Assembly (NCBI GenBank): GCA_021413735.1
Contig: JAIOPV010000201.1
Coordinates: 1 to 51,044, forward strand
Reading direction: 5' to 3'
DNA from: Planctomycetota bacterium
Lineage (GTDB): Bacteria > Planctomycetota > Planctomycetia > Gemmatales > Gemmataceae
DNA length: 51,044 nt
The position numbers were made by a program, and so were the translations under genes. The notes beneath the pieces are model-generated. The model saw nothing but the letters and a program-made list of their open reading frames with translations, ran no database searches and was not told the origin of the DNA. This document shows positions 6,368 to 50,151 of the stretch, piece after piece; the first letter of the stretch is position 1; every line of letters starts with the position of its first letter.

Positions 6368-6660
6368 ACGACATCAAGACTATCGGCACCGGAGCCGTCC
6401 TGCCCCCCGGCAGCACGCCTGCAATCGCGACCCTTCCAGAGGGCGGATACAAGGTGGTCATCAGCGGGTTCGACGAGAGCGGCATGATCCGCTGTGTCTA
6501 TCCGGGTGAGTTCGTGAAGCACCACCAGGCCGAGACGGTCGAAGAGCTGGCCGGCAAGGTCGTGAACCAACTCCGCGCGCGCTACGGCGTGCAAGAAATA
6601 CCGTTCGCGAGCGTGCCCAAAGAGATTGCGGCCGGTGAATCCTTCACGGTGGAGGCGTAA
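6364..6660 (+). CDS. Hypothetical phage protein
   Basis: The ATG at 6364 overlaps the head-closure stop (ATGA). The 98-residue protein has TLPEGGYKVVISGFDESGMIRCVYPGEF and a helical VEELAGKVVNQLRARYG segment, suggesting a small alpha/beta fold. No signal, membrane or catalytic motif is visible. It opens a block of seven appendage-type genes placed between head closure and tail completion. Function unknown. Confidence 0.62.
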   Translation: MNDIKTIGTGAVLPPGSTPAIATLPEGGYKVVISGFDESGMIRCVYPGEFVKHHQAETVEELAGKVVNQLRARYGVQEIPFASVPKEIAAGESFTVEA

Positions 6661-7068
6661 ATGGCCTCGAACCTCAAGGTGGCGGTGACAGCCAAGAACG
6701 CCGGACTCGATGCCAAGTACACTACCGCGATCGGCGCGTCAGGCCTGCTTCGCATCTACTCTGGCACTCAGCCGACTGACCCGGACACTGCCCTATCCGG
6801 CAATACCCTCCTTGCGGAACTCGCTCTATCTGCGACGTTCGCGGCGGGCGCAGCGTCAGGTGTCCTGACCGCCAACAGCATCACCGCCGATTCTTCGGCG
6901 GACGCCACCGGCACCGCAACGTTCTTCTCCCTCCTGACCTCCGGTGGCACCCGCAAGGTGGACGGAACCGTGGGAACTTCGGGTTGCGACTTGAATCTAA
7001 ATACGACAAGCATCGTGGCGGGAGCCCAGGTATCGGTGTCAAGTCTCACGCTGACGAGCGGCAATTAA
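6661..7068 (+). CDS. Hypothetical phage structural protein
   Basis: The ATG directly follows the previous stop with no gap. The 135-residue protein is rich in Ala, Ser, Thr and Gly with little charge. It contains TAIGASGLLRIYSGTQPTD, then LLAELALSATFAA, and ends in a strand-like VSVSSLTLTSGN. The 'LLRIYSGTQP' pattern recurs in uncharacterised virion proteins of siphoviruses of proteobacteria (recalled, not searched). A virion surface or fibre-base role is an inference. Confidence 0.66.
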   Translation: MASNLKVAVTAKNAGLDAKYTTAIGASGLLRIYSGTQPTDPDTALSGNTLLAELALSATFAAGAASGVLTANSITADSSADATGTATFFSLLTSGGTRKVDGTVGTSGCDLNLNTTSIVAGAQVSVSSLTLTSGN

Positions 7069-7069
7069 C

Positions 7070-7330
7070 ATGGAGCAAGCCGCCATCGCCGAATCCCTAG
7101 CCGCACTCTCGGCGGGTGGAGAGCGCCGGGCCACCGAGTTCATCCGCTGGACAAACGGCGCCTACTACCTGGAACTCCAGATCGATGCGGCGGGCAAGAT
7201 GTCGCACTCGACCAACCTACCGCAGTCCGTCATCGGCAAGGGCATGTACTGGCCAGACCCGGACGACCGCTATCGTGCTGACCTGACCGCCGCGCTCGAA
7301 GCCCTCAACACGCTGTCGTTCCTGCCGTGA
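7070..7330 (+). CDS. Hypothetical phage protein
   Basis: This 86-residue protein begins one base after the previous stop. It includes RRATEFIRWTNGAYYLELQI and a short C-terminal helix, DLTAALEALNTLSFLP. There is no membrane or signal region. Its stop overlaps the GTG of the next gene, so translation is probably coupled. It belongs to the appendage block. No function can be assigned. Confidence 0.6.
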   Translation: MEQAAIAESLAALSAGGERRATEFIRWTNGAYYLELQIDAAGKMSHSTNLPQSVIGKGMYWPDPDDRYRADLTAALEALNTLSFLP

Positions 7331-7668
7331 CCGCCGCCCCCGCCGTCAACACCTCTGGTTCGCAGACCGCGACCATCAGCACCGAACACTCGCTCGCCAC
7401 AATCACGAGCGCGAAAACGCTGCAACTCGTGGTGGACGCGGCCAACCTCGTCGGCGGAAGCACCCCGGACATTTTGGAACTGACCATCTACACCAAGGCC
7501 CGTTCCAGCGACACCAAGCGAATCCTCTTCCAGCAGCACTACATGGGGGCACAGAGCGTCGTCGAGTCGCTCTCCCCTCCCCACGCTTCACCGCACTACT
7601 TTGAAGCCACCCTCAAGCAGACCCAGGGCACCGGTCGCGCCTTCCCCTGGGCAATCAACGAACTGTGA
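7327..7668 (+). CDS. Hypothetical beta-rich phage protein
   Basis: A GTG start at 7327 overlaps the previous TGA. The 113-residue product begins with a low-complexity AAPAVNTSGSQTATI segment and has alternating strands: KTLQLVVDAANLVGGSTPD, ILELTIYTKARSSD, YFEATLKQTQGTGRAFPW. It resembles a small beta-sandwich virion protein. Its stop overlaps the GTG of the next gene, marking a translationally coupled pair. Function unknown; a structural role is inferred from context. Confidence 0.62.
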   Translation: MTAAPAVNTSGSQTATISTEHSLATITSAKTLQLVVDAANLVGGSTPDILELTIYTKARSSDTKRILFQQHYMGAQSVVESLSPPHASPHYFEATLKQTQGTGRAFPWAINEL

Positions 7669-8441
7669 ACTGGAACGTCCCGTTCGCGGGGTTCACGGAG
7701 GAGAGCGGACATAACAGCTCGGCTTCGCGTGCAACGGCCCTCACGACCAGCTACACAGAGTTCGAGTCTGCGACCGACTACGAGTGGCCGGGCTTCACCT
7801 TTCTCGCTACCTCCCGAACTGTGGGCGCTGACACCGACTTCACCATAGCCCTCGGGGCCGCTGCCGCCGAGTTTCCGATCGTGGACCGCATGCTGATGAG
7901 CAACGGCGGCTCGACCTATGCCCACAGTCGCGTGATTCACTGCCCGGTCCGGGTGCCGAAGGGTTCCCGGGTCGCCGTGAAGATCGGCACAACCTTCACC
8001 ACGCTCTACGGCCAGATCTTCGGTTGGGCAGCCGCTATGCCCGGGGCCTGCGCCTCGGCAGCCTTCCTCGAACGGGTCGGCACGGCCGGAACGGGTGTTT
8101 CGGTGGACGCCGGCGCTGTCCTGAACACGAAGGGGTCATGGACCTCTCTCGGCTCGAACACCTACGCCTGGAACGGCATGTTCGTGAACGTCTTGAGTGG
8201 CGACTCCGGCACCGGCGTCGACTTCAACGTGGACATCGGCATCGACCTCGCCGGAACGAAATTCATCATCGTCCCCGACCTGTACGTGACCAAGGGGTCC
8301 GGTTCGACCGTCAACCCGTTCGCGGTCCCGCTGCCGTGTTCTGTTCCTGCCGGCAGTAACCTCTACGCCCGCATCCAGGCCAGCACGACCACCTCGACCT
8401 CGCGCAAACTGGGCATCTGCCTGCACGGGATGGTGACGTAA
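7665..8441 (+). CDS. Phage appendage/structural protein, unknown family
   Basis: A GTG start at 7665 overlaps the previous stop. The 258-residue protein is beta-rich with SASRATALTTSYTEFES near the N-terminus and repeated aromatic-glycine strands, ending PCSVPAGSNLYARIQAS then LGICLHGMV. The composition suggests a globular tail-spike or decoration domain, but no active site is visible. It lies next to the 21-residue-repeat protein and is followed by it without a gap, so the two may form one appendage. Function is inferred only. Confidence 0.65.
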   Translation: MNWNVPFAGFTEESGHNSSASRATALTTSYTEFESATDYEWPGFTFLATSRTVGADTDFTIALGAAAAEFPIVDRMLMSNGGSTYAHSRVIHCPVRVPKGSRVAVKIGTTFTTLYGQIFGWAAAMPGACASAAFLERVGTAGTGVSVDAGAVLNTKGSWTSLGSNTYAWNGMFVNVLSGDSGTGVDFNVDIGIDLAGTKFIIVPDLYVTKGSGSTVNPFAVPLPCSVPAGSNLYARIQASTTTSTSRKLGICLHGMVT

Positions 8442-9686
8442 ATGTTCCGCTCGTGGGCCGGGCTCTGGGCGGCGCTCACCGAGTACGACGCGGGCGTTTC
8501 CGGCAGTGGCGCGGCAACGGAAGATAATGACACCGCTTCGGCGTCTGGCCTTGAGACGATAACCGGAACTGCTGCAAGCACGGAATCGAACGATACCGCT
8601 TCCGCGTCGGGAATTGCAGGGATTCGCGGCAGTGCGGCGGCAATGGAAGCCGACGACACGGCCTCTGCGGCAGCAACCGAAGCCTTCACCAGCTCCGCAT
8701 CCGCAACCGAAGCGGCCGATACAGCCAGTGGCAGCGGCTTGGAAACCATCACCGGCTCTGGTGCAATCACCGAGAGCGACGACACGGCATCGGGCACCGG
8801 CCTCGCGGGGATTCGCGGCAGCGCTGCCCCGACCGAGGATTCCGACACTGCCTCCGCGTCCGGCACCGAACTCATCACGGGTTCGGCGGCATCGACGGAA
8901 ACGGACGATACTTGCACCGCCTCCGGCCTCGCGGGGATTCGCGGCTCGCTTGCGTCCACGGAAACCGATGATTTGGCTTCAGCCAGCGGCCTGGAGACGA
9001 TCACCGGCACCTCAGCGGCCACGGAGGACAACGACACCGCGGGCGGTTCGGGGAGTGTTTCTGACTCGTCTACCACCGGCTCCGCCGCCATCACGGAAGG
9101 GGACGATTCGGCAGCCGCCGCAGGCTTACTCACGATTTCCGGACCAACCACCACCACCGAGGACGCCGACAGTGCTTCTGCATCCGGCACGGAGACTATC
9201 ACCGGCTCGGCCGGGATTTCCGAGTCGAACGACACCGCATCAGCGAGCGCCACGCTCGATTTCACCGCCACCGCTTCCGCCACCGAAGCCGCCGACTCCG
9301 CCAACGGTTCCGGCCTGCTCACCATCACCGGCACCGCCGCGCCGCAGGAATCCGACGACACGGCATCCGCAAGTGGTGCGCTCCTCATCTCGGGCTCCGC
9401 CGACGCGAACGAGGACGCCGACACCGCATCCGCCACAGGCTCGACAGCACTCCCCGTCACCGGGGTTGGTGCGGCTACCGAGCAAGACGACACCGCCGAT
9501 GGCTCCGCCCTCACGCTCATCGCCTCCGGGTTGAATGTCGTCACCGTCGCAGCAGAATCCCGCGTCGTCACCGTCGCCAACACGCCCCGAATCGTGCTGG
9601 TCGCAAACGACAACCGAATCATTACCGCTTCGGCCGCGAGCCGGACGGTCACCGTCAACGCCGAGAGCAGGGTCATCGCCGCATGA
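8442..9686 (+). CDS. Tandem 21-residue-repeat fibre protein
   Basis: The 414-residue protein starts at ATG 8442, immediately after the previous stop. Residues about 24-364 consist of some 16 tandem units of 21 residues built on ATE-D-DTASASGLETITGS; two units carry 2-3 extra residues. Each unit has an acidic T-E-x-x-D-D core and a hydrophobic GLETITG strand, consistent with a beta-helical or trimeric shaft. The C-terminal 50 residues are five 9-residue repeats such as VVTVAAESR and VVTVANTPR, a pattern recalled from proteins next to fibre-tail adaptors. No signal peptide. Likely a virion fibre. Confidence 0.75.
   Translation: MFRSWAGLWAALTEYDAGVSGSGAATEDNDTASASGLETITGTAASTESNDTASASGIAGIRGSAAAMEADDTASAAATEAFTSSASATEAADTASGSGLETITGSGAITESDDTASGTGLAGIRGSAAPTEDSDTASASGTELITGSAASTETDDTCTASGLAGIRGSLASTETDDLASASGLETITGTSAATEDNDTAGGSGSVSDSSTTGSAAITEGDDSAAAAGLLTISGPTTTTEDADSASASGTETITGSAGISESNDTASASATLDFTATASATEAADSANGSGLLTITGTAAPQESDDTASASGALLISGSADANEDADTASATGSTALPVTGVGAATEQDDTADGSALTLIASGLNVVTVAAESRVVTVANTPRIVLVANDNRIITASAASRTVTVNAESRVIAA
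8511..9530 (+). repeat. In-frame 63-bp tandem repeats within the fibre gene
   Basis: About 16 diverged 63-bp units encode the 21-residue repeats. Recurrent blocks include GACACCGC for the DTA core and GGGATTCGCGGCAG for the GIRG variant, which appears in three alternating units. The mixture of two subtypes (ETITG and AGIRG) suggests growth by duplication of more than one unit at a time. Confidence 0.75.
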
Positions 9687-22920: not shown

Positions 22921-23709
22921 CTACTGTTTCGTTTGCGGCACGTTGATGAACGGGGTGGAGTTGCTGCCCAGCATGTAAACCGGCAACTTGCCGTCCCACT
23001 TCTGCACGGCTTCCCACTGCACCAGGGCGGCGTTTTGCGTCAGTGCCTGGGCACGGATTTGCATGGACTTCGCCTCGGTTTCCGCCTTGATGAGCGTCTG
23101 CTTGGCTTCTTCCTGAACCTGAACCGTTTTGTTCTTGGCCTGCTCGGCTTCCTGAATGGCCCGCACCTTTGCCTCAACGGCCCCCTCGAACTCCTTGGTG
23201 TAGTCGATGTTCGACACCTCCACACGCGTGACCACGACGCCCTTCGTCGCCAGGACGGCGGCGATCGTCTCCTGGATCTCCTGCTGTGCCTTCCCGCGAT
23301 TCCCGATGAGGTCTACCGCGTCCCACTTGCCGATCACGGTCTTGAGCGTTCCTTGCGCCGTCTGCGGAATCAGCTTCTCGGCCCACTCCCGGCCCACGTT
23401 CTGATACATCTCGTTTGCGTGCTCTTTTTCCAGGTTGTAGTTGATCGTGACGTGCAGTTTGGCCTGTTGGATGTCGCGGGTGTAAGTCTCGGCATCGAAT
23501 TCCCACTTCTGCGTCCGCACATCCAACTCGACGATGGAGCTGCTGAACGGGTTGTAGAAGTAGATGCCTTCAGGCAGCGATTCGCCGGCCACTTTGCCGA
23601 ACCGAGTCTCGATTCCGCGATGGCCTGTGTCCACGATGGAGACGCCAAGGCAGCCTTGCAGTGAAAGCATCATGCCGATCAAGGCCGTGGTGGTGAGTAG
23701 TTTCTTCAT
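22921..23709 (-). CDS. SPFH/band-7 (prohibitin-like) lipoprotein
   Basis: The 262-residue protein starts with a lipoprotein signal (LIGMMLSLQGC, Cys20) instead of the usual membrane anchor. The SPFH domain follows: DTGHRGIETRFGKVAGESLP, EGIYFYNPFSSSIVELDVRT, then TYTRDIQQAKLHVTINYNLE and TKGVVVTRVEVSNIDYTKEF. A charged Ala/Glu/Lys helix (residues about 175-225) is the usual oligomerising coiled coil. SPFH proteins form membrane rings; phage-borne copies are known but their role is not. It heads three coupled cargo genes. Confidence 0.88.
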   Translation of the reverse strand: MKKLLTTTALIGMMLSLQGCLGVSIVDTGHRGIETRFGKVAGESLPEGIYFYNPFSSSIVELDVRTQKWEFDAETYTRDIQQAKLHVTINYNLEKEHANEMYQNVGREWAEKLIPQTAQGTLKTVIGKWDAVDLIGNRGKAQQEIQETIAAVLATKGVVVTRVEVSNIDYTKEFEGAVEAKVRAIQEAEQAKNKTVQVQEEAKQTLIKAETEAKSMQIRAQALTQNAALVQWEAVQKWDGKLPVYMLGSNSTPFINVPQTKQ

Positions 23710-24091: not shown

Positions 24092-24931
24092 TCAAGTCGA
24101 AACGAAGCTTGCGTCCAGGAAAGCGCCGCCGAACGGAATTGATTCGTAGGAGTAAGCTCTTCCACGGCTTTCGACCACGAAGTGCGACACGACCGCCGGG
24201 CGAACCACTTCGATGCGGAAATTGACTACAATTTCGCCCTGAATGACCGGCTCGCCGTCTATCACCAACTCGCCATCTTTGAACGTGCGAGTAGACTTCG
24301 CCTCGAAGTCATAATGCCCCGCAGGGGCCTCACCAGATCCGAAGGACCGAAGCCGCTCCTCACAGGCTTCCCGTGTCCAGGCCGTGATGTAATCCTTCAA
24401 GGGCATCACCACCCCTGCTGCGAGCACGGGGGCGTCGTTTTCCAACCTGCCCCGGTTTCTTGTGGTGTGGAGCGAGACGCTTGCGCGGGTTTGGGCGAGG
24501 TCCTGAAGCACTGCGTGATACCCAACCGGCACAGGAGAAGTTTTGGGGTCGTGCGCGGTGGCGAGGAGAAGAGTGATTCGAGGGTCTTTCCGAGCTTGCG
24601 CTTCCGCATCCGAGGTAAAGGATTTGGCAACGAAGATCCCGTCCTGCGCCCGCGAGACGCTGATTTTTTCCGAGAACACTATGATCTCGTTTTTCCCCAC
24701 CTTCTCCTTCCAGTTCTTGCACTCGAAAATGAAGCGAGTGGCGTATCCCGGCGCGATGTCGATCTCAACCCACACATCGATCTCGTGCCGCACCTCATCG
24801 ACCACAATCACTTTCTTGCTGAAGATGCGGAACGTCTTGTCGCTGTAACCAGGCGACTTCTCCAGAATGCACCGCTCAATCGCGCAGACCGCGTCTTCCA
24901 GTGCCTTTCCCTTCACGCTCGCATCGCTCAT
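24092..24931 (-). CDS. PD-(D/E)XK nuclease-like protein (Mrr-type fold)
   Basis: The 279-residue protein carries a restriction-endonuclease-like core in its first 110 residues: GKALEDAVCAIERCI helix, then VVDEVRHEIDVWVEIDI with the acidic Asp, and RFIFECKNWKEKVGKNEI with the E-x-K motif. IFVAKSFTSDAEAQARKDP continues the fold. The C-terminal half (from about residue 165) is a separate beta-rich domain of unknown type. No methylase is adjacent. It may be a restriction-like defence protein or a DNA-processing enzyme. Confidence 0.75.
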   Translation of the reverse strand: MSDASVKGKALEDAVCAIERCILEKSPGYSDKTFRIFSKKVIVVDEVRHEIDVWVEIDIAPGYATRFIFECKNWKEKVGKNEIIVFSEKISVSRAQDGIFVAKSFTSDAEAQARKDPRITLLLATAHDPKTSPVPVGYHAVLQDLAQTRASVSLHTTRNRGRLENDAPVLAAGVVMPLKDYITAWTREACEERLRSFGSGEAPAGHYDFEAKSTRTFKDGELVIDGEPVIQGEIVVNFRIEVVRPAVVSHFVVESRGRAYSYESIPFGGAFLDASFVST

Positions 24932-28878: not shown

Positions 28879-29378
28879 TCAGTCGAGGAAGCCATCGAGT
28901 TCACGCCGGAGTCGCGGCAAGACGTGAAGACGGGCAGCGCGATACACCCAATCCACTGCGACACCCAGTTCCTTGGCAATGTCAGCAGCTGGCCGACCTT
29001 CGACGGCAAACGCCCAGAATGCTTGCCAGATCCGAGGGTCGAAATCCGCCTGGAGGACACCTATTACCCTGCTTCGCAAGTGGCGGAACGCACGACGGTG
29101 AATAACCAACCACGGAAGCGACGGGATGGGTCATACTCGAGTTTCGGAAGCGCAGTGAGCAACCGGACGAACACATCCTGGGACACATCGGCTCGCTCTC
29201 CCACCCCAACCCCGAGGTGTCCCACCCATGCCAAAACAACGGGGGCATACAGATCGATGAATCGATTCCAAGCGGCTGGGTCGGATGGCCCACGCAGTCG
29301 ATCGAGCAACGTGCGTGGAGTGGGGTCCGGTGGCGCGACTGTCATCCGGTGAGTGCTCGCAATCTGCCGGTGAGACAC
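28879..29378 (-). pseudogene. Broken ECF sigma factor gene
   Basis: Two - strand frames carry the two ends of one ECF sigma factor. The first (29378-29064) has TLLDRLRGPSDPAAWNRFID, YAPVVLAWVGHLG, DVSQDVFVRLL and FRGWLFTVVR, sigma region 2. The second (29109-28879) has ADFDPRIWQAFWAFAVEGRP, AADIAKELGVAVDWVYRA and LRRELDGFLD, sigma region 4. They are in different frames, and only about 20 residues separate the ends where relatives have roughly 70-80, so both a frame change and a deletion are likely. It stands directly upstream of the kinase. Confidence 0.78.
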
Positions 29379-29506: not shown

Positions 29507-29535
29507 CAAGAAGAAACCCCGGCTTGTGGCCGGGG
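29507..29535 (-). terminator. Terminator of the ART/partner operon
   Basis: On the - strand, CCCCGGC (29535-29529), loop CACAA, GCCGGGG (29523-29517) is followed by TTTCTTCTTG. It lies six bases beyond the stop of the basic partner gene. It would end the ART-partner transcript. The 29379-29506 stretch holds nothing I can support. Confidence 0.7.
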
Positions 29536-29540
29536 AGGAG

Positions 29541-29885
29541 TCAGGCGGTCACAGCTTTCTTCCCGCCGGGTTTCTTTTTGACAGCAGCCGTCTTCACGAC
29601 GCCGTAGATGATCTTTGTCGCCGGAGGTTTGGGCTTCACGGGTGCCGCCTTGCGTTTCGTCTTTGCCGGCGGTTGGTAGTGGGCGGTGAGCTTGCCGTCT
29701 TCCGAGAGAACTCCGATGCGGATCAAGGTTTGTCGCGTCTGTTGGGGCGTTCGCTTTTTCGCCCGCTCGAGGATGAAGCCGAACTTATTCGGTTGGGCGA
29801 CCGTAGCGACCGTCTTCACGGACGTGCCAGACGGCGAGGATGCTTTGGGGGTTTCGGACACAGATTTGGATGTGTGTTTCTTCAC
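29541..29885 (-). CDS. Basic partner of the ADP-ribosyltransferase gene (antitoxin-like)
   Basis: A GTG at 29885 behind GGGAG gives 114 residues; an ATG at 29942 is an alternative. The core is NKFGFILERAKKRTPQQTRQ, TLIRIGVLSEDGKLTAHYQ; the helix plus 'GVL...GKLT..Y' ending is recalled from small proteins next to ART-type genes. The C-terminus is Lys/Pro/Ala-rich (TKRKAAPVKPKPPATK, KTAAVKKKPGGKK), like a nucleic-acid-binding tail. It overlaps the 3' end of the ART gene by about 100 bases, a strong sign of coupling. An antitoxin or regulator role is inferred. Confidence 0.65.
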   Translation of the reverse strand: MKKHTSKSVSETPKASSPSGTSVKTVATVAQPNKFGFILERAKKRTPQQTRQTLIRIGVLSEDGKLTAHYQPPAKTKRKAAPVKPKPPATKIIYGVVKTAAVKKKPGGKKAVTA

Positions 29886-30378
29886 TGATCCAACTCCCAG
29901 TATAGACTCGCTTGGCAGTCGAGGTTGGGACGAACACTGCACGAGCAGTGTCTAAAGGCATTTCGGCCGCCTCGAAATCGTCGTACAGATAATTAAAAAC
30001 GGCACAATCCAAAACCCGATGGCTCCGCACGTTCACCGGAATCTGTGCGTTCACATCCTGCATGTCCGCGACCATCTTGTCATGAAATCCGCGTAGCAGC
30101 GTCACGTTTCCTGTGTCGAGGAGATCGAAACACCTACCGAGTCGCAGGACTGCACCGATGACCGCCGGGTGTGGATTGTCATCGCGTCTCGCCCACCACC
30201 ACGCTTGCTGGAAGGCGTGCTCCCAGAAGTAGATGCCCTTCCCGAACCACTCGTCGTCTTCGTCACTTTCTTCAAACGGATCACCCGCCACAAGTCGATC
30301 TGCCGCTTCGACGGTCGTCCCGTGGTAGCCGATGACCGTTCTGTGGTAGTCGGCAAAGTCGATGGGCGGGGGCGGCAC
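29785..30378 (-). CDS. PARP-like ADP-ribosyltransferase-fold protein
   Basis: A GTG at 30378 with GGAG five bases upstream is preferred over the GTG at 30456; it gives 197 residues. The protein has VIGYHGTTVEAADRLVAG and EWFGKGIYFWEHAFQQAWWW. The H-G-T...F-G-K-G-I-Y-F pattern is the NAD-binding signature of PARP/ARTD enzymes (His19, Tyr50). GSWISEETHIQICVRNP near the end offers Glu166/167 as the third catalytic residue. It probably transfers ADP-ribose to an unknown target. The downstream gene overlaps it, and a NADAR gene diverges from it. Confidence 0.75.
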   Translation of the reverse strand: MPPPPIDFADYHRTVIGYHGTTVEAADRLVAGDPFEESDEDDEWFGKGIYFWEHAFQQAWWWARRDDNPHPAVIGAVLRLGRCFDLLDTGNVTLLRGFHDKMVADMQDVNAQIPVNVRSHRVLDCAVFNYLYDDFEAAEMPLDTARAVFVPTSTAKRVYTGSWISEETHIQICVRNPQSILAVWHVREDGRYGRPTE

Positions 30379-30738
30379 GGGAAGCTCCGCAGGGCGGTGC
30401 GGAGTAATTTTACCACAATTTGGATAAGAAAGCAGCGGCGAAAAGAGCGGCCCCACGAGCTTCCAGACTCCACCTTGCCCTGCAGCGCATTTTGCCGCTC
30501 ACCCGTGGGGCCTACCCGCCACACCGCTAGAAGGAGCCTGGACGCGATGGAAAGTGGCGGGTTTGGCGAAGCGTGAGAAGCCAGGTAAACAGCTTCATAG
30601 TGCACCTCCTTTCGGCAAGAGGGAAGGGATGCCACGCCGCCAGAAGGTGATTCGTCGTGCCGTGGCCGAGATTTTGCAGGGCGAACCAACATCCCGGTTC
30701 CGATCTCCAGGGGGTAGTATCACTCACCGGAGGAAGCC
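30379..30738. promoter_or_regulatory. Divergent intergenic region between ART and NADAR genes, with inverted repeats
   Basis: No gene is supported in these 360 bases. They must hold the promoters of both divergent genes. Two 9-bp perfect inverted repeats are visible: GGCCCCACG (30449-30457) with CGTGGGGCC (30504-30512), and ACCCGCCAC (30514-30522) with GTGGCGGGT (30554-30562). They could form mRNA hairpins or operator half-sites. Ribosome sites lie at 30724-30731 (CCGGAGGA) for NADAR. Confidence 0.4.
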
Positions 30739-31194
30739 ATGCCCGTGATCGAGTTCTACTCCACCGCCGCAGATTACGGATGTTTCTCGAACTTCTCCCG
30801 CCACTCGGTCTTCCTCAAAGGGAAGCGGTGGCTGACCACCGAGCATTTCTTCCAAGCCCAAAAGTTTGCAGGCACCGAGCACGAGGAGAAGGTACGGCGG
30901 ACGAAAAAGCCGAGCGAAGCCGCTGCGATGGGCCGTGACCGGAAGTTGCCCCTCCGGCGAGACTGGGAGAGCGTGAAGGATCAGGTCATGCTCGAAGCCG
31001 TGCGCGCGAAGTTCGCCCAGCACGACGACCTTCGAGAGATTCTGCTCGCCACCGGAGACGCGAAGTTGGTCGAACACACCGAGAACGACAGTTACTGGGG
31101 TGACGGCGGCGACGGGTCGGGGAAGAACCAGCTCGGACAAATCCTCATGCGGGTCCGCGAGGAGTTGCAAGCAGCGGAAGTCGCACCCGAATGA
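30739..31194 (+). CDS. NADAR-family protein (YbiA-like; proposed ADP-ribose-removing hydrolase)
   Basis: The 151-residue protein has all NADAR landmarks: GCFSNFSRHSVFLKGKRWLT, TEHFFQAQKFAG, LPLRRDWESVKDQVM, and TENDSYWGDGGDGSGKNQLG. CGGAGGA precedes the ATG. NADAR proteins hydrolyse the N-glycosidic bond of ADP-ribose-like compounds; YbiA acts on riboflavin intermediates, and other members remove ADP-ribose from guanosine and counteract DarT-type toxins. Its divergence from an ART gene makes the second role attractive, but substrate cannot be read from the sequence. A terminator follows. Confidence 0.9.
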   Translation: MPVIEFYSTAADYGCFSNFSRHSVFLKGKRWLTTEHFFQAQKFAGTEHEEKVRRTKKPSEAAAMGRDRKLPLRRDWESVKDQVMLEAVRAKFAQHDDLREILLATGDAKLVEHTENDSYWGDGGDGSGKNQLGQILMRVREELQAAEVAPE

Positions 31195-31212: not shown

Positions 31213-31236
31213 AGCCCCCATTTGGGGGGCTCTTTT
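31213..31236 (+). terminator. Terminator of the NADAR gene
   Basis: AGCCCCC (31213-31219), loop ATTTG, GGGGGCT (31225-31231) is followed by CTTTTC, starting 19 bases after the NADAR stop. It forms a good intrinsic terminator before the convergent membrane gene. Confidence 0.75.
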
Positions 31237-31264: not shown

Positions 31265-31927
31265 TCACGGCTGTCCGACTGCCGCCTTCTTTTCCTCCAA
31301 CTCCTTCTGCTCCTTTTGAAGCTTCAGTTTCTCGAGCGTATCGAGCCGTCGCTGGGCAATGCGCCAGAAGATGAATCCGAAAACGGAACCGACCACTCCA
31401 AGCAAAATTCCCATGAAGGCGAAATTGCAATTTCCCTTCGTGGTGGCGGCCTGTCGCCAGAGGTTTTCCACCGTGGTGCTGTGCTGCCGGAGTTTGGTAC
31501 GAAGCTCTTTCACTGCGTCGGGCGGGAATGCGGTGCCCACCTCCGGAGAAGCCTTGCTCGCCCCCGTCGAAGAACTGGCGAGCCAGTTGTCCCAGAAGGT
31601 CAACACCTCCCGATACTGGTCGCGCCACTTGGCGTCACCGAGGAGGGGGAACTTGGTGCCGGGCCGAATCTGAACCAGCTTCCCGTCGGTGTCCGGAATT
31701 GCGAGCTTGACGGTGAGCGGCTCCTTGGTCTTCACCTGGGATGCCAGAATGTTCATCCGGGTTTCCATCTCGGTCACGAACTCGATGTACTGCTCCCGTG
31801 CCGCGATCTCGCTGGTCCGGAGCCGATCTTCTTGATCCTGAATGACCCACACCGACGCCCCGGCCAGGATGATGCCGCCGATGGCAAGGAACTTAAACAG
31901 GTTGTCTGTCGGGATCGCTGGAAGCAC
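31265..31927 (-). CDS. Two-TM protein with extracytoplasmic domain and C-terminal coiled coil
   Basis: The frame is open to 32524, but upstream residues are implausible and the GTG at 31927 is the first start before the first membrane segment; it lacks a clear ribosome site. The 220-residue product has LFKFLAIGGIILAGASVWVI as the first span, an extracytoplasmic part with helices (REQYIEFVTEMETRMNILAS), a second span near the end (FMGILLGVVGSVFGFIFWRI), and a charged helix (LEKLKLQKEQKELEEKKAAV). No family is recognised. It lies between the intact and truncated NADAR copies. Confidence 0.65.
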   Translation of the reverse strand: MLPAIPTDNLFKFLAIGGIILAGASVWVIQDQEDRLRTSEIAAREQYIEFVTEMETRMNILASQVKTKEPLTVKLAIPDTDGKLVQIRPGTKFPLLGDAKWRDQYREVLTFWDNWLASSSTGASKASPEVGTAFPPDAVKELRTKLRQHSTTVENLWRQAATTKGNCNFAFMGILLGVVGSVFGFIFWRIAQRRLDTLEKLKLQKEQKELEEKKAAVGQP

Positions 31928-32016
31928 GGTGTGTATTCCGTGGTGTAGGACTCGGTGAAGGCCGTCATTAAGAGGTTCGATCTTCCTGCCTTGATCTTTC
32001 TGGACTGCACCTTTGC

Positions 32017-32116: not shown

Positions 32117-32476
32117 ATCCAGGCGCAGAAGTTTGCCGGGGAACCCGATGAGGAAGAGATTCGCATGACCTCGAAGCCCGCACAGGCCGCCAGCATGGGG
32201 CGCGACCGGAAACGACCGCTGCGGCGAGACTGGGAATCCGTGAAGGAACAGGTGATGCTCGACGCTTTGCGAGCGAAGTTCACCCAGCACGATGAAGCGA
32301 AAGCCGTCTTGCTTGGCACCGGGGATGCCAAGCTGGTAGAGCACACCGTGAAGGATTCCTACTGGGGCGACGGCGGCGACGGGAGCGGAAAGAATCGCCT
32401 CGGGCAATTGCTGATGAAACTGCGTGAAGAGTTGCGTCAGGAAAGCACACAGCCGCCAGCGAAAGCCGGCGGCTGA
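32117..32476 (+). pseudogene. 5'-truncated second NADAR copy
   Basis: From codon 32117 the frame matches residues 38-145 of the intact NADAR protein nearly residue for residue: QAQKFAG, RDRKRPLRRDWESVKEQVM, and VKDSYWGDGGDGSGKNRLG. The first about 38 residues (FSNFS and the W-x-x-T-E-H-F motif) are missing and are replaced by unrelated reading frame. That segment holds conserved residues of the active site, so it is probably inactive. The frame opens to an ATG at 31955, but that part looks non-coding. It ends with stop TGA at 32476. Confidence 0.75.
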
Positions 32477-37370: not shown

Positions 37371-37931
37371 TCAGTCCTGGACGCTGCCTAACGACGACCG
37401 GAACCGCGCCACCGATTCCCGTACCTCAGCGGTGCCGTCTTCGTTCGACGACCAACCCAGCGGTTCGATTGTCACGCCTTCGAGTTGCTTGTACGTCGTG
37501 AAGAAGAATTCGACCTCGCGAACGAAGTGAACCGGCACATCGTCGAGTTTGCGGATATGCGAGAACAGCGGGTCTTTGTGCGGCACCGCGAGAATCTTGA
37601 AGTCGTTGAAGCCCTTATCCTTCATGCGGAAGATGCCGACGACACGCGCTTCAATCAGACACCCCGAGAATGTCGCTTCGTTCACCATCACGAGAATGTC
37701 GAGGGGGTCACCGTCTTCGGCGAGGGTCTGCGGAATGAAGCCGTAGTCGCCGGGGTACACTGCGGAGCTGTAGAGGTAGCGGTCGAGTTTGATGAGCCCG
37801 GTGACCTTGCATACCTCGAATTTGCTCCGTCGTCCCTTGGGGATCTCGATGATGCAATTGACGACACTTGCTTCGCCGGTTCCCGGCGGAATCATCATGT
37901 AATCGCGGAGGTAGTCACGGCGAGCGAACAT
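37371..37931 (-). CDS. ppa: Inorganic pyrophosphatase, family I
   Basis: The 186-residue protein hydrolyses pyrophosphate to two phosphates in the cytoplasm. It has VVNCIIEIPKGRRSKFEV with the active-site Glu, Lys and Arg, RYLYSSAVYPGDYGFIPQTL, and the family signature DGDPLD (Asp73, Asp75, Asp78) that binds metal. The C-terminal HFVREVEFFFTTYKQLEG matches the family. The N-terminus MFARRDYLRD is a little longer than usual; the Met at residue 12 is an alternative start. Normal housekeeping gene. Confidence 0.95.
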   Translation of the reverse strand: MFARRDYLRDYMMIPPGTGEASVVNCIIEIPKGRRSKFEVCKVTGLIKLDRYLYSSAVYPGDYGFIPQTLAEDGDPLDILVMVNEATFSGCLIEARVVGIFRMKDKGFNDFKILAVPHKDPLFSHIRKLDDVPVHFVREVEFFFTTYKQLEGVTIEPLGWSSNEDGTAEVRESVARFRSSLGSVQD

Positions 37932-48915: not shown

Positions 48916-50151
48916 ATGTCCATCTTCACTCGCGTTCTGAAAGCGCTGAAGCCTGCCCTTCCGAAGTCGCCTCCGCCACGCGTGTCGGCCGTGTTCGCTC
49001 CGCCGTATCCCGCAGCCGGTTGGTGGCACGACGACCCTGCCGAGCAACTCCGCAACTATCGCTCGTGGGTGTACGCCGCGGTGAACGCCATCGGGCAGGA
49101 AGCTGCTCGGCAACGTCCGTTCCTGTACCGCAACACGGGGCAGGCCGAACATGAGATGGTGGCGCTACCGCACACGCATCCGCTTTGTCGATTGTTGGAT
49201 CACCCGAACCCGTGGCTGACGCCGTGGGAGCTGTGGTATCTCACGACGGTCTATCTCGAACTCACCGGCAACGCGTTTTGGTACGTCGCTCCGCAGTCAG
49301 TCGGCGATACACGGCTCGGCACTCCAGGCGAAATCTGGATCATCCCGACGCCGTGGGTTCGCATCGTTCCCGATCGCACCGAGTACGTGAAGTCTTACCA
49401 AGTCGCGGCGCCCGGCGTGCCTGCCGAAGAGTTCGGACCGGACGAGATTATCCACCTGAAGTATCCGAACCCGCTCGACCCGCATTACGGACTGTCGCCG
49501 CTGCAGGCGAACGCACTGACCGTTGATGCGAACACGGAGTTGCTGAAGTCACGCTATCAGACCTTCCTCGCGGGTGCGAAGCCGGGCGTTGTGCTTCAGA
49601 CCGATCAGACGCTGACGGATCAAACTGTCGCGAGGCTCGAAGACAAGCTGACTGCGAAGTTCAGCGGGCGCGACAACTGGCATCGGCCGCTCGTGCTGGA
49701 ACAGGGATTGAAGGCGAGCCCGTGGACGCTGACGCCGGCCGAGATGGACTTCCTCAATTCGTCTCGCATGACTCGCGACGAAATCCTCGCGGTGTTCCGT
49801 GTGCCGCCACCGATCACGGGCGTTGTCGAGAACATGGGCCTCGGCGCTGACATCTGGTTCGGCGCCCGCGTGATGTTCTGCGAAGGAACAATTCAGCCGA
49901 AGCTCGACCTGATCGGACAGGCACTGACCCGCGACCTCGGGCATCGTTACGGTCCGGATGTCGCGATCAGCTTTCCGGACTGCTCGCCGCGAAACCTCGA
50001 TCAGCGCCGCAAGGACGACGAACTCGACGCGAAGCTCGGGCTGCGAACCTTCAACGAGATTCGCAAGGCTCGTGGCCTCGACCCCTTCCCCGACGCCCGC
50101 TTCGACAAACCGATTTTGCCCACGGATTTACGGAGCGAACCCGGAGCGTGA
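48916..50151 (+). CDS. HK97-family phage portal protein (second module)
   Basis: The 411-residue protein has RSWVYAAVNAIGQEAARQRP, LLDHPNPWLTPWELWYLTTV, ELTGNAFWYV, and FGPDEIIHLKYPNPLDPHYG, LSPLQANALTVDANTELLK. ILAVFRVPPPITGVVENM and RTFNEIRKARGLDP are typical of portal C-termini. It forms the DNA portal of an HK97-like head. Its similarity to the portal end at the window start is limited to the general NEIR..RGL-type ending, so it is a different element. No terminase is adjacent. Confidence 0.93.
   Translation: MSIFTRVLKALKPALPKSPPPRVSAVFAPPYPAAGWWHDDPAEQLRNYRSWVYAAVNAIGQEAARQRPFLYRNTGQAEHEMVALPHTHPLCRLLDHPNPWLTPWELWYLTTVYLELTGNAFWYVAPQSVGDTRLGTPGEIWIIPTPWVRIVPDRTEYVKSYQVAAPGVPAEEFGPDEIIHLKYPNPLDPHYGLSPLQANALTVDANTELLKSRYQTFLAGAKPGVVLQTDQTLTDQTVARLEDKLTAKFSGRDNWHRPLVLEQGLKASPWTLTPAEMDFLNSSRMTRDEILAVFRVPPPITGVVENMGLGADIWFGARVMFCEGTIQPKLDLIGQALTRDLGHRYGPDVAISFPDCSPRNLDQRRKDDELDAKLGLRTFNEIRKARGLDPFPDARFDKPILPTDLRSEPGA

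What the first reader, a model, noticed from the sequence alone, without database searches (positions are those of the whole stretch)
29541..31194. Possible ADP-ribosylation writer/eraser system: PARP-like ART, basic partner and divergent NADAR
A PARP-like protein (HGTT and FGKGIYF motifs) overlaps a small Lys-rich gene and diverges from a NADAR gene. NADAR proteins are known to remove ADP-ribose from guanosine and some serve as antitoxins against DarT-type toxins. A PARP-fold writer, a nucleic-acid-binding-like partner, and a NADAR eraser would be a new arrangement, close to a prophage and next to another NADAR relic. That the genes act together is inference; the overlap and divergence are seen.
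Basis: partly seen in the sequence, partly recalled or inferred. Interest (0 to 1): 0.8.

Follow-up and report, generated by a model that had tools for sequence, protein, structure and literature searches.

The report
Unannotated CmdT-like ADP-ribosyltransferase toxin–antitoxin pair
A planctomycete carries an ADP-ribosyltransferase gene paired with a tiny partner gene, and this pair recurs across many bacterial phyla and plasmids like an overlooked toxin–antitoxin module, while the neighbouring NADAR "eraser" gene is usually absent.

Summary
In detail: a PARP-like ADP-ribosyltransferase (ART; 29785-30378, minus), a small Lys-rich gene overlapping its 3' end (29541-29819, minus) and a divergent intact NADAR (30739-31194, plus), with a truncated NADAR beyond. 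The writer/eraser reading is only partly supported. The conserved unit is ART plus small partner: the partner lies beside the ART in 83 of 94 homologous loci (37 downstream, 42 upstream, 4 convergent), and gene order follows the ART tree. 86 of 91 ART members weakly match PADLOC's CmdT model; the partner is predicted as two helices plus a loose tail, as published for CmdA; no SecB gene adjoins. I read it as a chaperone-less, CmdTA-like toxin-antitoxin module. NADAR lies nearby in 1 of 80 genome and 0 of 14 viral loci; in the family survey only the window and one other genus have it, with NADARs of separate lineages. In the window the resident NADAR gene was split at FQAQK, apparently by an integrative element (integrase beside its 5' half on another contig; 3' half = the "relic"). 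NADAR#1 may therefore be a spare copy rather than the eraser, though a second-line eraser is not excluded. Function is inferred; nothing was assayed.

The parts
29785..30378 (-). ADP-ribosyltransferase (ART), PARP-like fold, H-Y-Q triad; likely GTG start at 30378 (longest ORF starts at 30456)
   Evidence: 86 of 91 family members match PADLOC PD-T4-9_A (CmdT) at E<=1e-3
29541..29819 (-). small Lys-rich partner, candidate antitoxin; core KFGFILERAKKRTPQQTRQTLIRIGVLSEDGKLTAHY; likely GTG start at 29819 (longest ORF starts at 29942)
29517..29535 (-). terminator-like hairpin directly after the small gene
   Evidence: consensus scan only
30739..31194 (+). intact NADAR (NADAR#1), YbiA type; E35/K42 and W76/E112/D117/W120 match published catalytic and ligand residues
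   Evidence: residue roles from passages of PMC11543638, mapped by me from motif and spacing within each block, not by structure
31213..31231 (+). terminator-like hairpin after NADAR#1
   Evidence: consensus scan only
31265..31960 (-). uncharacterised, membrane-protein-like ORF between NADAR#1 and the NADAR relic (start uncertain)
   Evidence: no Pfam match; membrane call is by eye
32118..32131 (+). putative right attachment site: 14-nt word TCCAGGCGCAGAAG, identical to the left junction on contig C273
32118..32476 (+). 3' part of the genus-core NADAR gene (the relic)
   Evidence: 91% identical to the NADAR of G016 over 118 residues, groups with it in the tree (94/87), beside core 3' neighbours
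37371..37931 (-). inorganic pyrophosphatase, conserved 3' neighbour of the core NADAR locus (marks the ancestral site)
   Evidence: (matches in 11 of the 20 loci searched)

Best explanation
The ART and its small partner form a two-gene toxin-antitoxin-like module related to CmdTA of the CmdTAC anti-phage system, but without the SecB-like chaperone. The ART would bind NAD+ and transfer ADP-ribose to a cellular target, by analogy with CmdT possibly RNA, stopping growth or aborting infection. The small partner (a helix pair plus a loose tail) would bind the ART, help it fold and keep it silent until it is degraded or displaced. The pair sits at the right end of what appears to be an integrative element that inserted into the resident NADAR gene. 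NADAR#1 most likely restores the NADAR function broken by the insertion; it may in addition clean up leaked ADP-ribosylation. Shown here: conserved H-Y-Q, a predicted ART fold, frequent adjacency of the partner, correlated divergence of the two proteins, plasmid and viral-contig carriage of relatives, a split NADAR beside an integrase. Inferred: toxicity, neutralisation, target, trigger, mobility of this copy, role of NADAR#1.
For: Partner beside the ART in 83 of 94 loci at 8 bits or more (71 of the 83 at 15 bits or more); of the 83, 14 had supplied profile seeds, and among the other 69, 57 reach 15 bits. Only 2 profile hits of 8 bits or more away from any ART, in 921 kb. All 39 partner-upstream rows of the ART tree fall in one clade (46 rows, 100/100). 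ART and partner distances correlate over 54 loci (Mantel r 0.46, 0 of 1000 permutations; also within each gene order). ART fold. Weak but consistent CmdT profile match in 86 of 91 members. Partner predicted as helices 12-22 and 25-35 plus coil, as CmdA is described in PMC11618068 (passages). A relative of the ART (query L124) is on 64 plasmid records, 35 typed conjugative; in 4 of 5 opened the gene directly upstream matches the partner profile. Split NADAR, integrase, TraG-like gene, shared 14-nt word.
Against: No toxicity or binding data. The CmdT match covers about half the protein, has no stated cut-off here, and the PD-T4-9_A model also rings in 1 of 14 control genomes (M. jannaschii) and not in E. 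coli. No sequence match links the partner to CmdA, and I held no CmdT or CmdA sequence to align. Structural scores are modest: no Foldseek match at E<=1e-3, and the tool warns that Z under 8 may mean only a common arrangement. Gln replaces the catalytic Glu, so activity is not assured. The window ART is acidic (pI 4.9), whereas CmdT is described with a positive cleft. 11 of 94 loci showed no adjacent partner by the rule used: 4 have a hit overlapping the ART frame's start, 3 more look related by eye, 4 have none; 1 of 5 plasmid records opened has none. Contigs C273 and C185 are not joined, so the element's extent is inferred.
Confidence: 0.66

Rival explanations
1. A genuine three-part writer/eraser system: ART modifies a base (likely guanine), the small partner controls the ART, and NADAR#1 is the cognate eraser that protects the host, as YbiA does for YarT.
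For: Two independent ART-NADAR adjacencies, same divergent geometry, in different genera; chance expectation 0.0045 for 13 loci, and 0.004 for the 12 without the window, of which one shows it. NADAR#1 has intact catalytic residues and matches defence-associated NADAR models weakly or below cut-off. YbiA-type NADAR rescues YarT toxicity in print (PMC11125620, section 6). In the family, 10 of 12 ART genomes have a NADAR (one of them, G054, below the family cut-off) against 41 of 83 without ART (p 0.03; 9 of 11 without the window, p 0.056).
Against: Nearly all ART loci lack NADAR, including G029, which holds the window's nearest full-length relative (61%). Phylum-wide co-occurrence is not significant (3 of 14 against 39 of 377 without the window, p 0.18). 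The two NADARs belong to their own host lineages, not to an ART-linked clade. CmdT modifies adenine N6, and the NADAR activity on nucleic acid that I saw in print is on guanine (PMC11618068, PMC11833690, passages).
Confidence: 0.2
2. NADAR adjacency is a by-product of integration: elements insert in or beside NADAR genes and carry a replacement copy, so the ART pair is ordinary cargo at a NADAR hotspot. (Compatible with the best explanation; a rival only to the eraser reading.)
For: Resident NADAR split at FQAQK; 5' half with core 5' neighbours directly beside a tyrosine integrase on C273, 3' half with core 3' neighbours in the window. G006 also has an intact NADAR plus a C-terminal relic about 2 kb away, with no ART at that locus. 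In G008 the locus that matches G007's ART locus (transporter gene 87% identical) has a different NADAR and a lipoprotein-like gene in place of the pair.
Against: In G007 I saw no integrase or relic on the 13.5-kb contig (ORFs by eye; profile). G006's breakpoint differs. Other integrations into NADAR were not systematically sought.
Confidence: 0.5
3. The small partner is a cofactor that activates or aims the ART (as HPF1 does for PARP1/2, recalled) rather than an antitoxin.
For: CmdT needs CmdA to fold (PMC11618068, passages); the triad lacks Glu; partners are mostly basic.
Against: No acidic residue is invariant in the partner; only one Gly is invariant, and a second Gly and a Tyr are at least 90% conserved.
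Confidence: 0.15
4. The ART is an NAD+-degrading toxin, like NatT or MbcT (their activities recalled), with no macromolecular acceptor.
For: Among the best VIA-align rows are NatT (Z 8.2) and MbcT (Z 7.8).
Against: Z near 8 is tied with PARPs and diphtheria toxin, and the tool warns that middling Z is common. CmdT profile similarity points to a transferase.
Confidence: 0.15

Closest known systems
CmdTAC (PD-T4-9), E. coli anti-phage toxin-antitoxin-chaperone system (PMC9519451, PMC11618068)
   Same: ART with H-Y-[E/D/Q] triad and weak profile similarity (86 of 91 members); small partner encoded beside it; partner predicted as a helix pair plus loose tail
   Different: No adjacent SecB-like chaperone gene found; partner has no PADLOC match; gene order variable across the family; target unknown; here with a divergent NADAR
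YarT-YbiA toxin-antitoxin (myxobacteria, PMC11125620)
   Same: An ART beside a YbiA-type (Glu) NADAR
   Different: YarT is a small Tre23-like ART encoded downstream of YbiA in an operon, with no small third partner described in the section read; here the genes are divergent and a separate conserved partner is present. Homology of the two ARTs was not tested (no YarT sequence held)
DarT1-NADAR (DarTG1)
   Same: ART plus NADAR
   Different: ART has no match to a DarT family in Pfam; NADAR is Glu-type, not Asp-type; not an operon
ART-fold toxins with antitoxins of known structure (NatRT, MbcTA, ParST)
   Same: Fold and toxin-antitoxin style organisation
   Different: Z about 7-8 only; profile search of solved chains found none at E<=1

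Membership tests
ART (PARP/diphtheria-type) superfamily | ART fold | tested here: met
   Model pLDDT 93.9; the listed Foldseek and VIA-align rows are nearly all ART-fold proteins (PARP2 probability 0.99 at E 1.4e-3; 308 of 989 aligned chains with Z>=5), though single scores are modest
ART (PARP/diphtheria-type) superfamily | H-Y-[E/D/Q] triad | tested here: met
   H19 at least 90% conserved, Y50 and Q171 invariant in 91 sequences; placing Q171 as third triad residue is by strand position, not by superposition
CmdTAC | CmdT-family ART | tested here: inconclusive
   PADLOC PD-T4-9_A E 7.7e-8 and 4.5e-7 for the window over about half the protein; 86 of 91 members at E<=1e-3 with one model, 60 with the other
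CmdTAC | CmdA-like antitoxin | tested here: inconclusive
   Similar predicted architecture (against passages); no PADLOC match in 7 partners tested plus the window's
CmdTAC | adjacent SecB-like chaperone gene | tested here: not met
   The window pair's neighbours are a sigma-70 region 2 ORF and NADAR. In 124 neighbours at homologous loci no SecB or PD-T4-9 partner is among the families listed (25 of 114 Pfam, 25 of 34 PADLOC listed), so single cases there are not excluded
YarT-YbiA | YbiA-type (Glu) NADAR | tested here: met
   LVEHT, E112, mapped by motif and spacing to published E125
YarT-YbiA | YbiA and ART in one operon | tested here: not met
   Divergent genes, 360 bp between likely starts
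YarT-YbiA | ART homologous to YarT | not tested
DarT1-NADAR | DarT toxin and Asp-type NADAR in an operon | tested here: not met
   No DarT-family Pfam match; Glu-type NADAR; divergent genes
Toxin-antitoxin module | small gene consistently adjacent to toxin-like gene | tested here: met
   83 of 94 loci; 4 of 5 plasmid records opened
Toxin-antitoxin module | toxicity neutralised by partner | not testable with these tools
   needs expression assay

The most novel reading that the evidence does not exclude
A layered ADP-ribosylation module: a CmdT-related ART restrained by a protein antitoxin and, in some lineages, backed by a divergently transcribed NADAR that erases its base modification. The element would disrupt the host NADAR while supplying its own, making the host dependent on the element for the antidote (addiction by antidote capture).
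Probability: 0.15. Interest if true: 0.85.

Novelty: new variant of a known kind. Interest (0 to 1): 0.56.

Why it matters
If right, CmdT-related ADP-ribosyltransferases are far wider than CmdTAC: a two-gene, chaperone-less form occurs in Planctomycetota, Verrucomicrobiota, Myxococcota, Pseudomonadota, Bacteroidota, Bacillota, plasmids and viral contigs, and matches no Pfam or NCBIfam family in the members tested. It would show how such an ART toxin is controlled without a chaperone sensor, and offers a simple system for testing what these ARTs modify. The rare NADAR-linked members give a direct test of whether a CmdT-like ART modifies a base that NADAR can clean.

Tried and rejected
Rejected: DarT (no Pfam match); a conserved ART-small-NADAR operon; the two ART-linked NADARs as one lineage (starred branches force two placements); a decayed ART pair at G008's matching locus (no match); true CmdTAC in sampled Planctomycetota (PDLC04068 found 6 of 392 genomes, at most 29.6 bits, all six at ART places already).

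Led nowhere: sequence search of PDB with the ART gave 7 rows at E 0.4-0.7, six bromodomains and one exotoxin over the HGT motif (Pfam likewise showed the exotoxin A catalytic family below cut-off at E 0.11); its profile gave none; phages collection with the window ART (no match); sigma-70 promoter scan (none); NCBIfam on 91 ART members (0). The PHROG match is to phrog_14664, function unknown (91 of 91). Neighbour families show no common third gene (no Pfam family in more than 3 of 124).

Limits: one search kept the best 80 of 256 relatives found by one strict motif (G[KRH]G[IV]YFWE), so divergent members are missed and the sample leans to close ones; 55 of 80 genome loci and 10 of 14 viral loci have at least 2 kb on both sides. 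L069 and L070 are the same contigs as G029:C382 and G007:C136. One search scored at most 8 candidates per genome and may undercount. L123, L137, L161 were left out of A2 as near-copies and L125 as incomplete. The partner rule (8 bits, unfiltered search) admits weak hits: 12 of 83 are under 15 bits. Of 176 neighbour ORFs found by script, 148 were picked and I dropped 24 more by hand (ORFs close to or overlapping the partner, and a few others) before the scan of 124. In one search, of six pairwise codon comparisons of the partner core only some show a third-position excess (window against G007:C462 12/9/18; window against G007:C136 22/15/22), so selection on the gene is suggested, not proved. 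"Not found in print" rests on the paper searches in an open-licence library, of which I read listings, and passages or named sections of eight papers.
Full report
1. What is there. The window is contig C185 of a 9.8-Mb, 293-contig genome. On the minus strand a 223-codon ORF (29785-30456) encodes the ART; close homologues begin near GTG 30378. A second minus-strand ORF (29541-29942) overlaps its 3' end; a later GTG at 29819 gives a 92-residue protein. On the plus strand 30739-31194 encodes a complete NADAR. A terminator-like hairpin follows the small gene and another the NADAR.

2. The ART. Pfam and NCBIfam give no significant match; PHROG gives a family of unknown function; PADLOC gives PD-T4-9_A, which is CmdT, at about 1e-7 (identity of PD-T4-9 with CmdTAC from PMC9519451, passages). 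A 91-sequence alignment has invariant W44, G46, G48, Y50, F51, W52, E53, C83, D124, H169 and Q171, with H19 at least 90% conserved. AlphaFold2: pLDDT 93.9, pTM 0.88. Foldseek's best PDB matches are PARP2 and PARP1 (best E 1.4e-3, TM about 0.36-0.42); VIA-align gives NatT 8.2, diphtheria toxin 7.8, MbcT 7.8, tankyrase 7.6. Single scores are modest, but the lists are dominated by ART-fold proteins, and with the conserved H and Y motifs I call it an ART with an H-Y-Q triad. In the 91-member set 86 match PD-T4-9_A at E<=1e-3 and none match NCBIfam.

3. The small partner. A motif scan of the genome collection (84,980 species by its description) found 256 relatives of the ART, of which the best 80 were kept, and a scan of viral contigs found 14. 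A profile built from 16 partner stretches (14 from these 94 loci, counting two that are the same contigs under other locus numbers) finds the partner beside the ART in 83 of 94: downstream 37, upstream 42, convergent 4. The threshold is 8 bits; 71 of 83 reach 15 bits, and of the 69 loci that gave no seed 57 do. Of the 11 without, four (L129, L136, L145, L155) have a hit just overlapping the start of the ART frame, three (L075, L089, L092) have a similar-looking downstream ORF by eye, and four (L084, L100, L116, L120) have neither. Only two profile hits of 8 bits or more lie away from any ART, in 921 kb. All 39 partner-upstream rows of the ART tree fall in one clade (46 rows: 39 up, 7 none; support 100/100), the downstream and convergent ones outside it: gene order changed, adjacency stayed. 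ART and partner distances correlate over 54 loci (r 0.46; 0 of 1000 permutations). Against the partner at G007:C462, whose ART fragment is the closest to the window's (84% over 45 residues), the 37 core codons differ at 12/9/18 first/second/third positions, a mild third-position excess that more distant pairs show less or not. The predicted structure is two helices (12-22, 25-35) and coil. PMC11618068 (passages) describes CmdA as a pair of N-terminal helices followed by a long unstructured domain, and reports that CmdT needs CmdA to fold. Partners are mostly basic (72% of 83 above pI 9; 24% below 7), so nucleic-acid binding is not a safe inference.

4. Mobility. A relative of the ART (query: the L124 member) occurs in 64 plasmid records, 35 typed conjugative. 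In the five records opened a small hypothetical gene lies directly upstream, and in four of the five it matches the partner profile; the Comamonas one does not. In the 30 of 64 records listed the ART is annotated as a hypothetical protein or not at all. The window ART itself found nothing in the phages collection.

5. The NADAR. NADAR#1 matches Pfam NADAR (4e-42) and TIGR02464 (9.4e-45), and weakly or below cut-off two defence-associated NADAR models; its E112 puts it in the YbiA subfamily as defined in PMC11543638 (passages). In the family survey NADAR is in 51 of 95 genomes and ART in 12 of 95; they lie together only in the window and in G007:C136, with the same divergent geometry. Chance expectation is 0.0045 for 13 ART loci, so adjacency is non-random, but in the wider sets it is nearly absent: 1 of 80 genome loci (L070, which is G007 again), 0 of 14 viral, and in 392 phylum genomes only the window of 15 ART genomes. 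In the tree the starred branches force two separate placements of the ART-linked NADARs: G007's pairs with a NADAR of G008 (94/83), the window's sits in a 20-row group that holds the NADARs of its own genus (99/99).

6. How NADAR#1 got there. The relic is the 3' part of the genus's usual NADAR gene: 91% identical to G016's over 118 residues, and followed by the FG-GAP-like (by eye) and pyrophosphatase genes that flank that gene in relatives. The missing 5' part is on contig C273, with the usual 5' neighbours (70-83% identical to those at G016's locus), ending at FQAQK and followed by a tyrosine integrase; a TraG-like gene lies further along. The two junctions share the 14-nt word TCCAGGCGCAGAAG. 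The simplest reading is that an integrative element entered the resident NADAR, and that NADAR#1, the ART and the small gene came with it or with later changes at its right end. The contigs are not joined, so this is inference. G006 has a similar intact-plus-relic NADAR with no ART at that locus. In G008 the locus that matches G007's ART locus (neighbouring transporter gene 87% identical) has another NADAR (50% identical) and a lipoprotein-like gene where G007 has the ART pair.

7. Mechanism. Best reading: a chaperone-less CmdTA-like module, in which the ART arrests cells by ADP-ribosylation and the small partner folds and restrains it. The target is unknown; RNA is the analogy from CmdT (adenine N6 in GA dinucleotides of single-stranded RNA, PMC11618068 abstract), but the acidic window ART and the Gln triad advise caution. 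NADAR#1 is more likely a functional replacement of the broken NADAR than a dedicated eraser, since the NADAR activity on nucleic acid that I saw in print is at guanine (PMC11833690, passages) and CmdT acts on adenine. A second-line eraser role remains possible; the YarT-YbiA pair (PMC11125620, section 6) is the precedent.

8. Novelty. ART toxin-antitoxin systems, CmdTAC and ART-YbiA pairs are all known. The two-gene family defined here, its partner motif and its gene-order switch were not found in the paper searches run. New variant of a known kind.

Noticed in passing
window 1-20400 and 48916-50151: Phage structural genes at both contig ends: prohead protease, capsid and tail at the left (by eye), portal at the right (Pfam). 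The order would close if the contig were circular or lay between two similar prophages; no exact terminal overlap of 20 bases or more. Core chromosomal genes lie between.
   Followed up: partly
window 24092-24931 and 22921-23709: Mrr-type restriction endonuclease domain and a Band-7/SPFH protein to the left of the ART locus (Pfam).
   Followed up: partly
window 28879-29378: A sigma-70 region 2 ORF and a region-4-like ORF (by eye) in different frames: possibly a frameshifted ECF sigma factor, beside a serine/threonine kinase-like gene (by eye).
   Followed up: no
L065 (G006:C8) 6554-9381: Another genome with an intact NADAR and a C-terminal NADAR relic about 2 kb apart, with other ORFs between: NADAR may be a recurrent insertion target.
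   Followed up: partly
window about 30850-30866 versus 32118-32131: NADAR#1 carries a diverged version of the 14-nt junction word, which might protect it from the same integrase (speculative).
   Followed up: no
L008/L017 (G030:C141): An ART of this family with internal stops and a frame change relative to its partner: a broken copy in a relative.
   Followed up: no
L103 (uncultured proteobacterium): Two copies of the ART, each with its own adjacent partner, in tandem in one locus.
   Followed up: no
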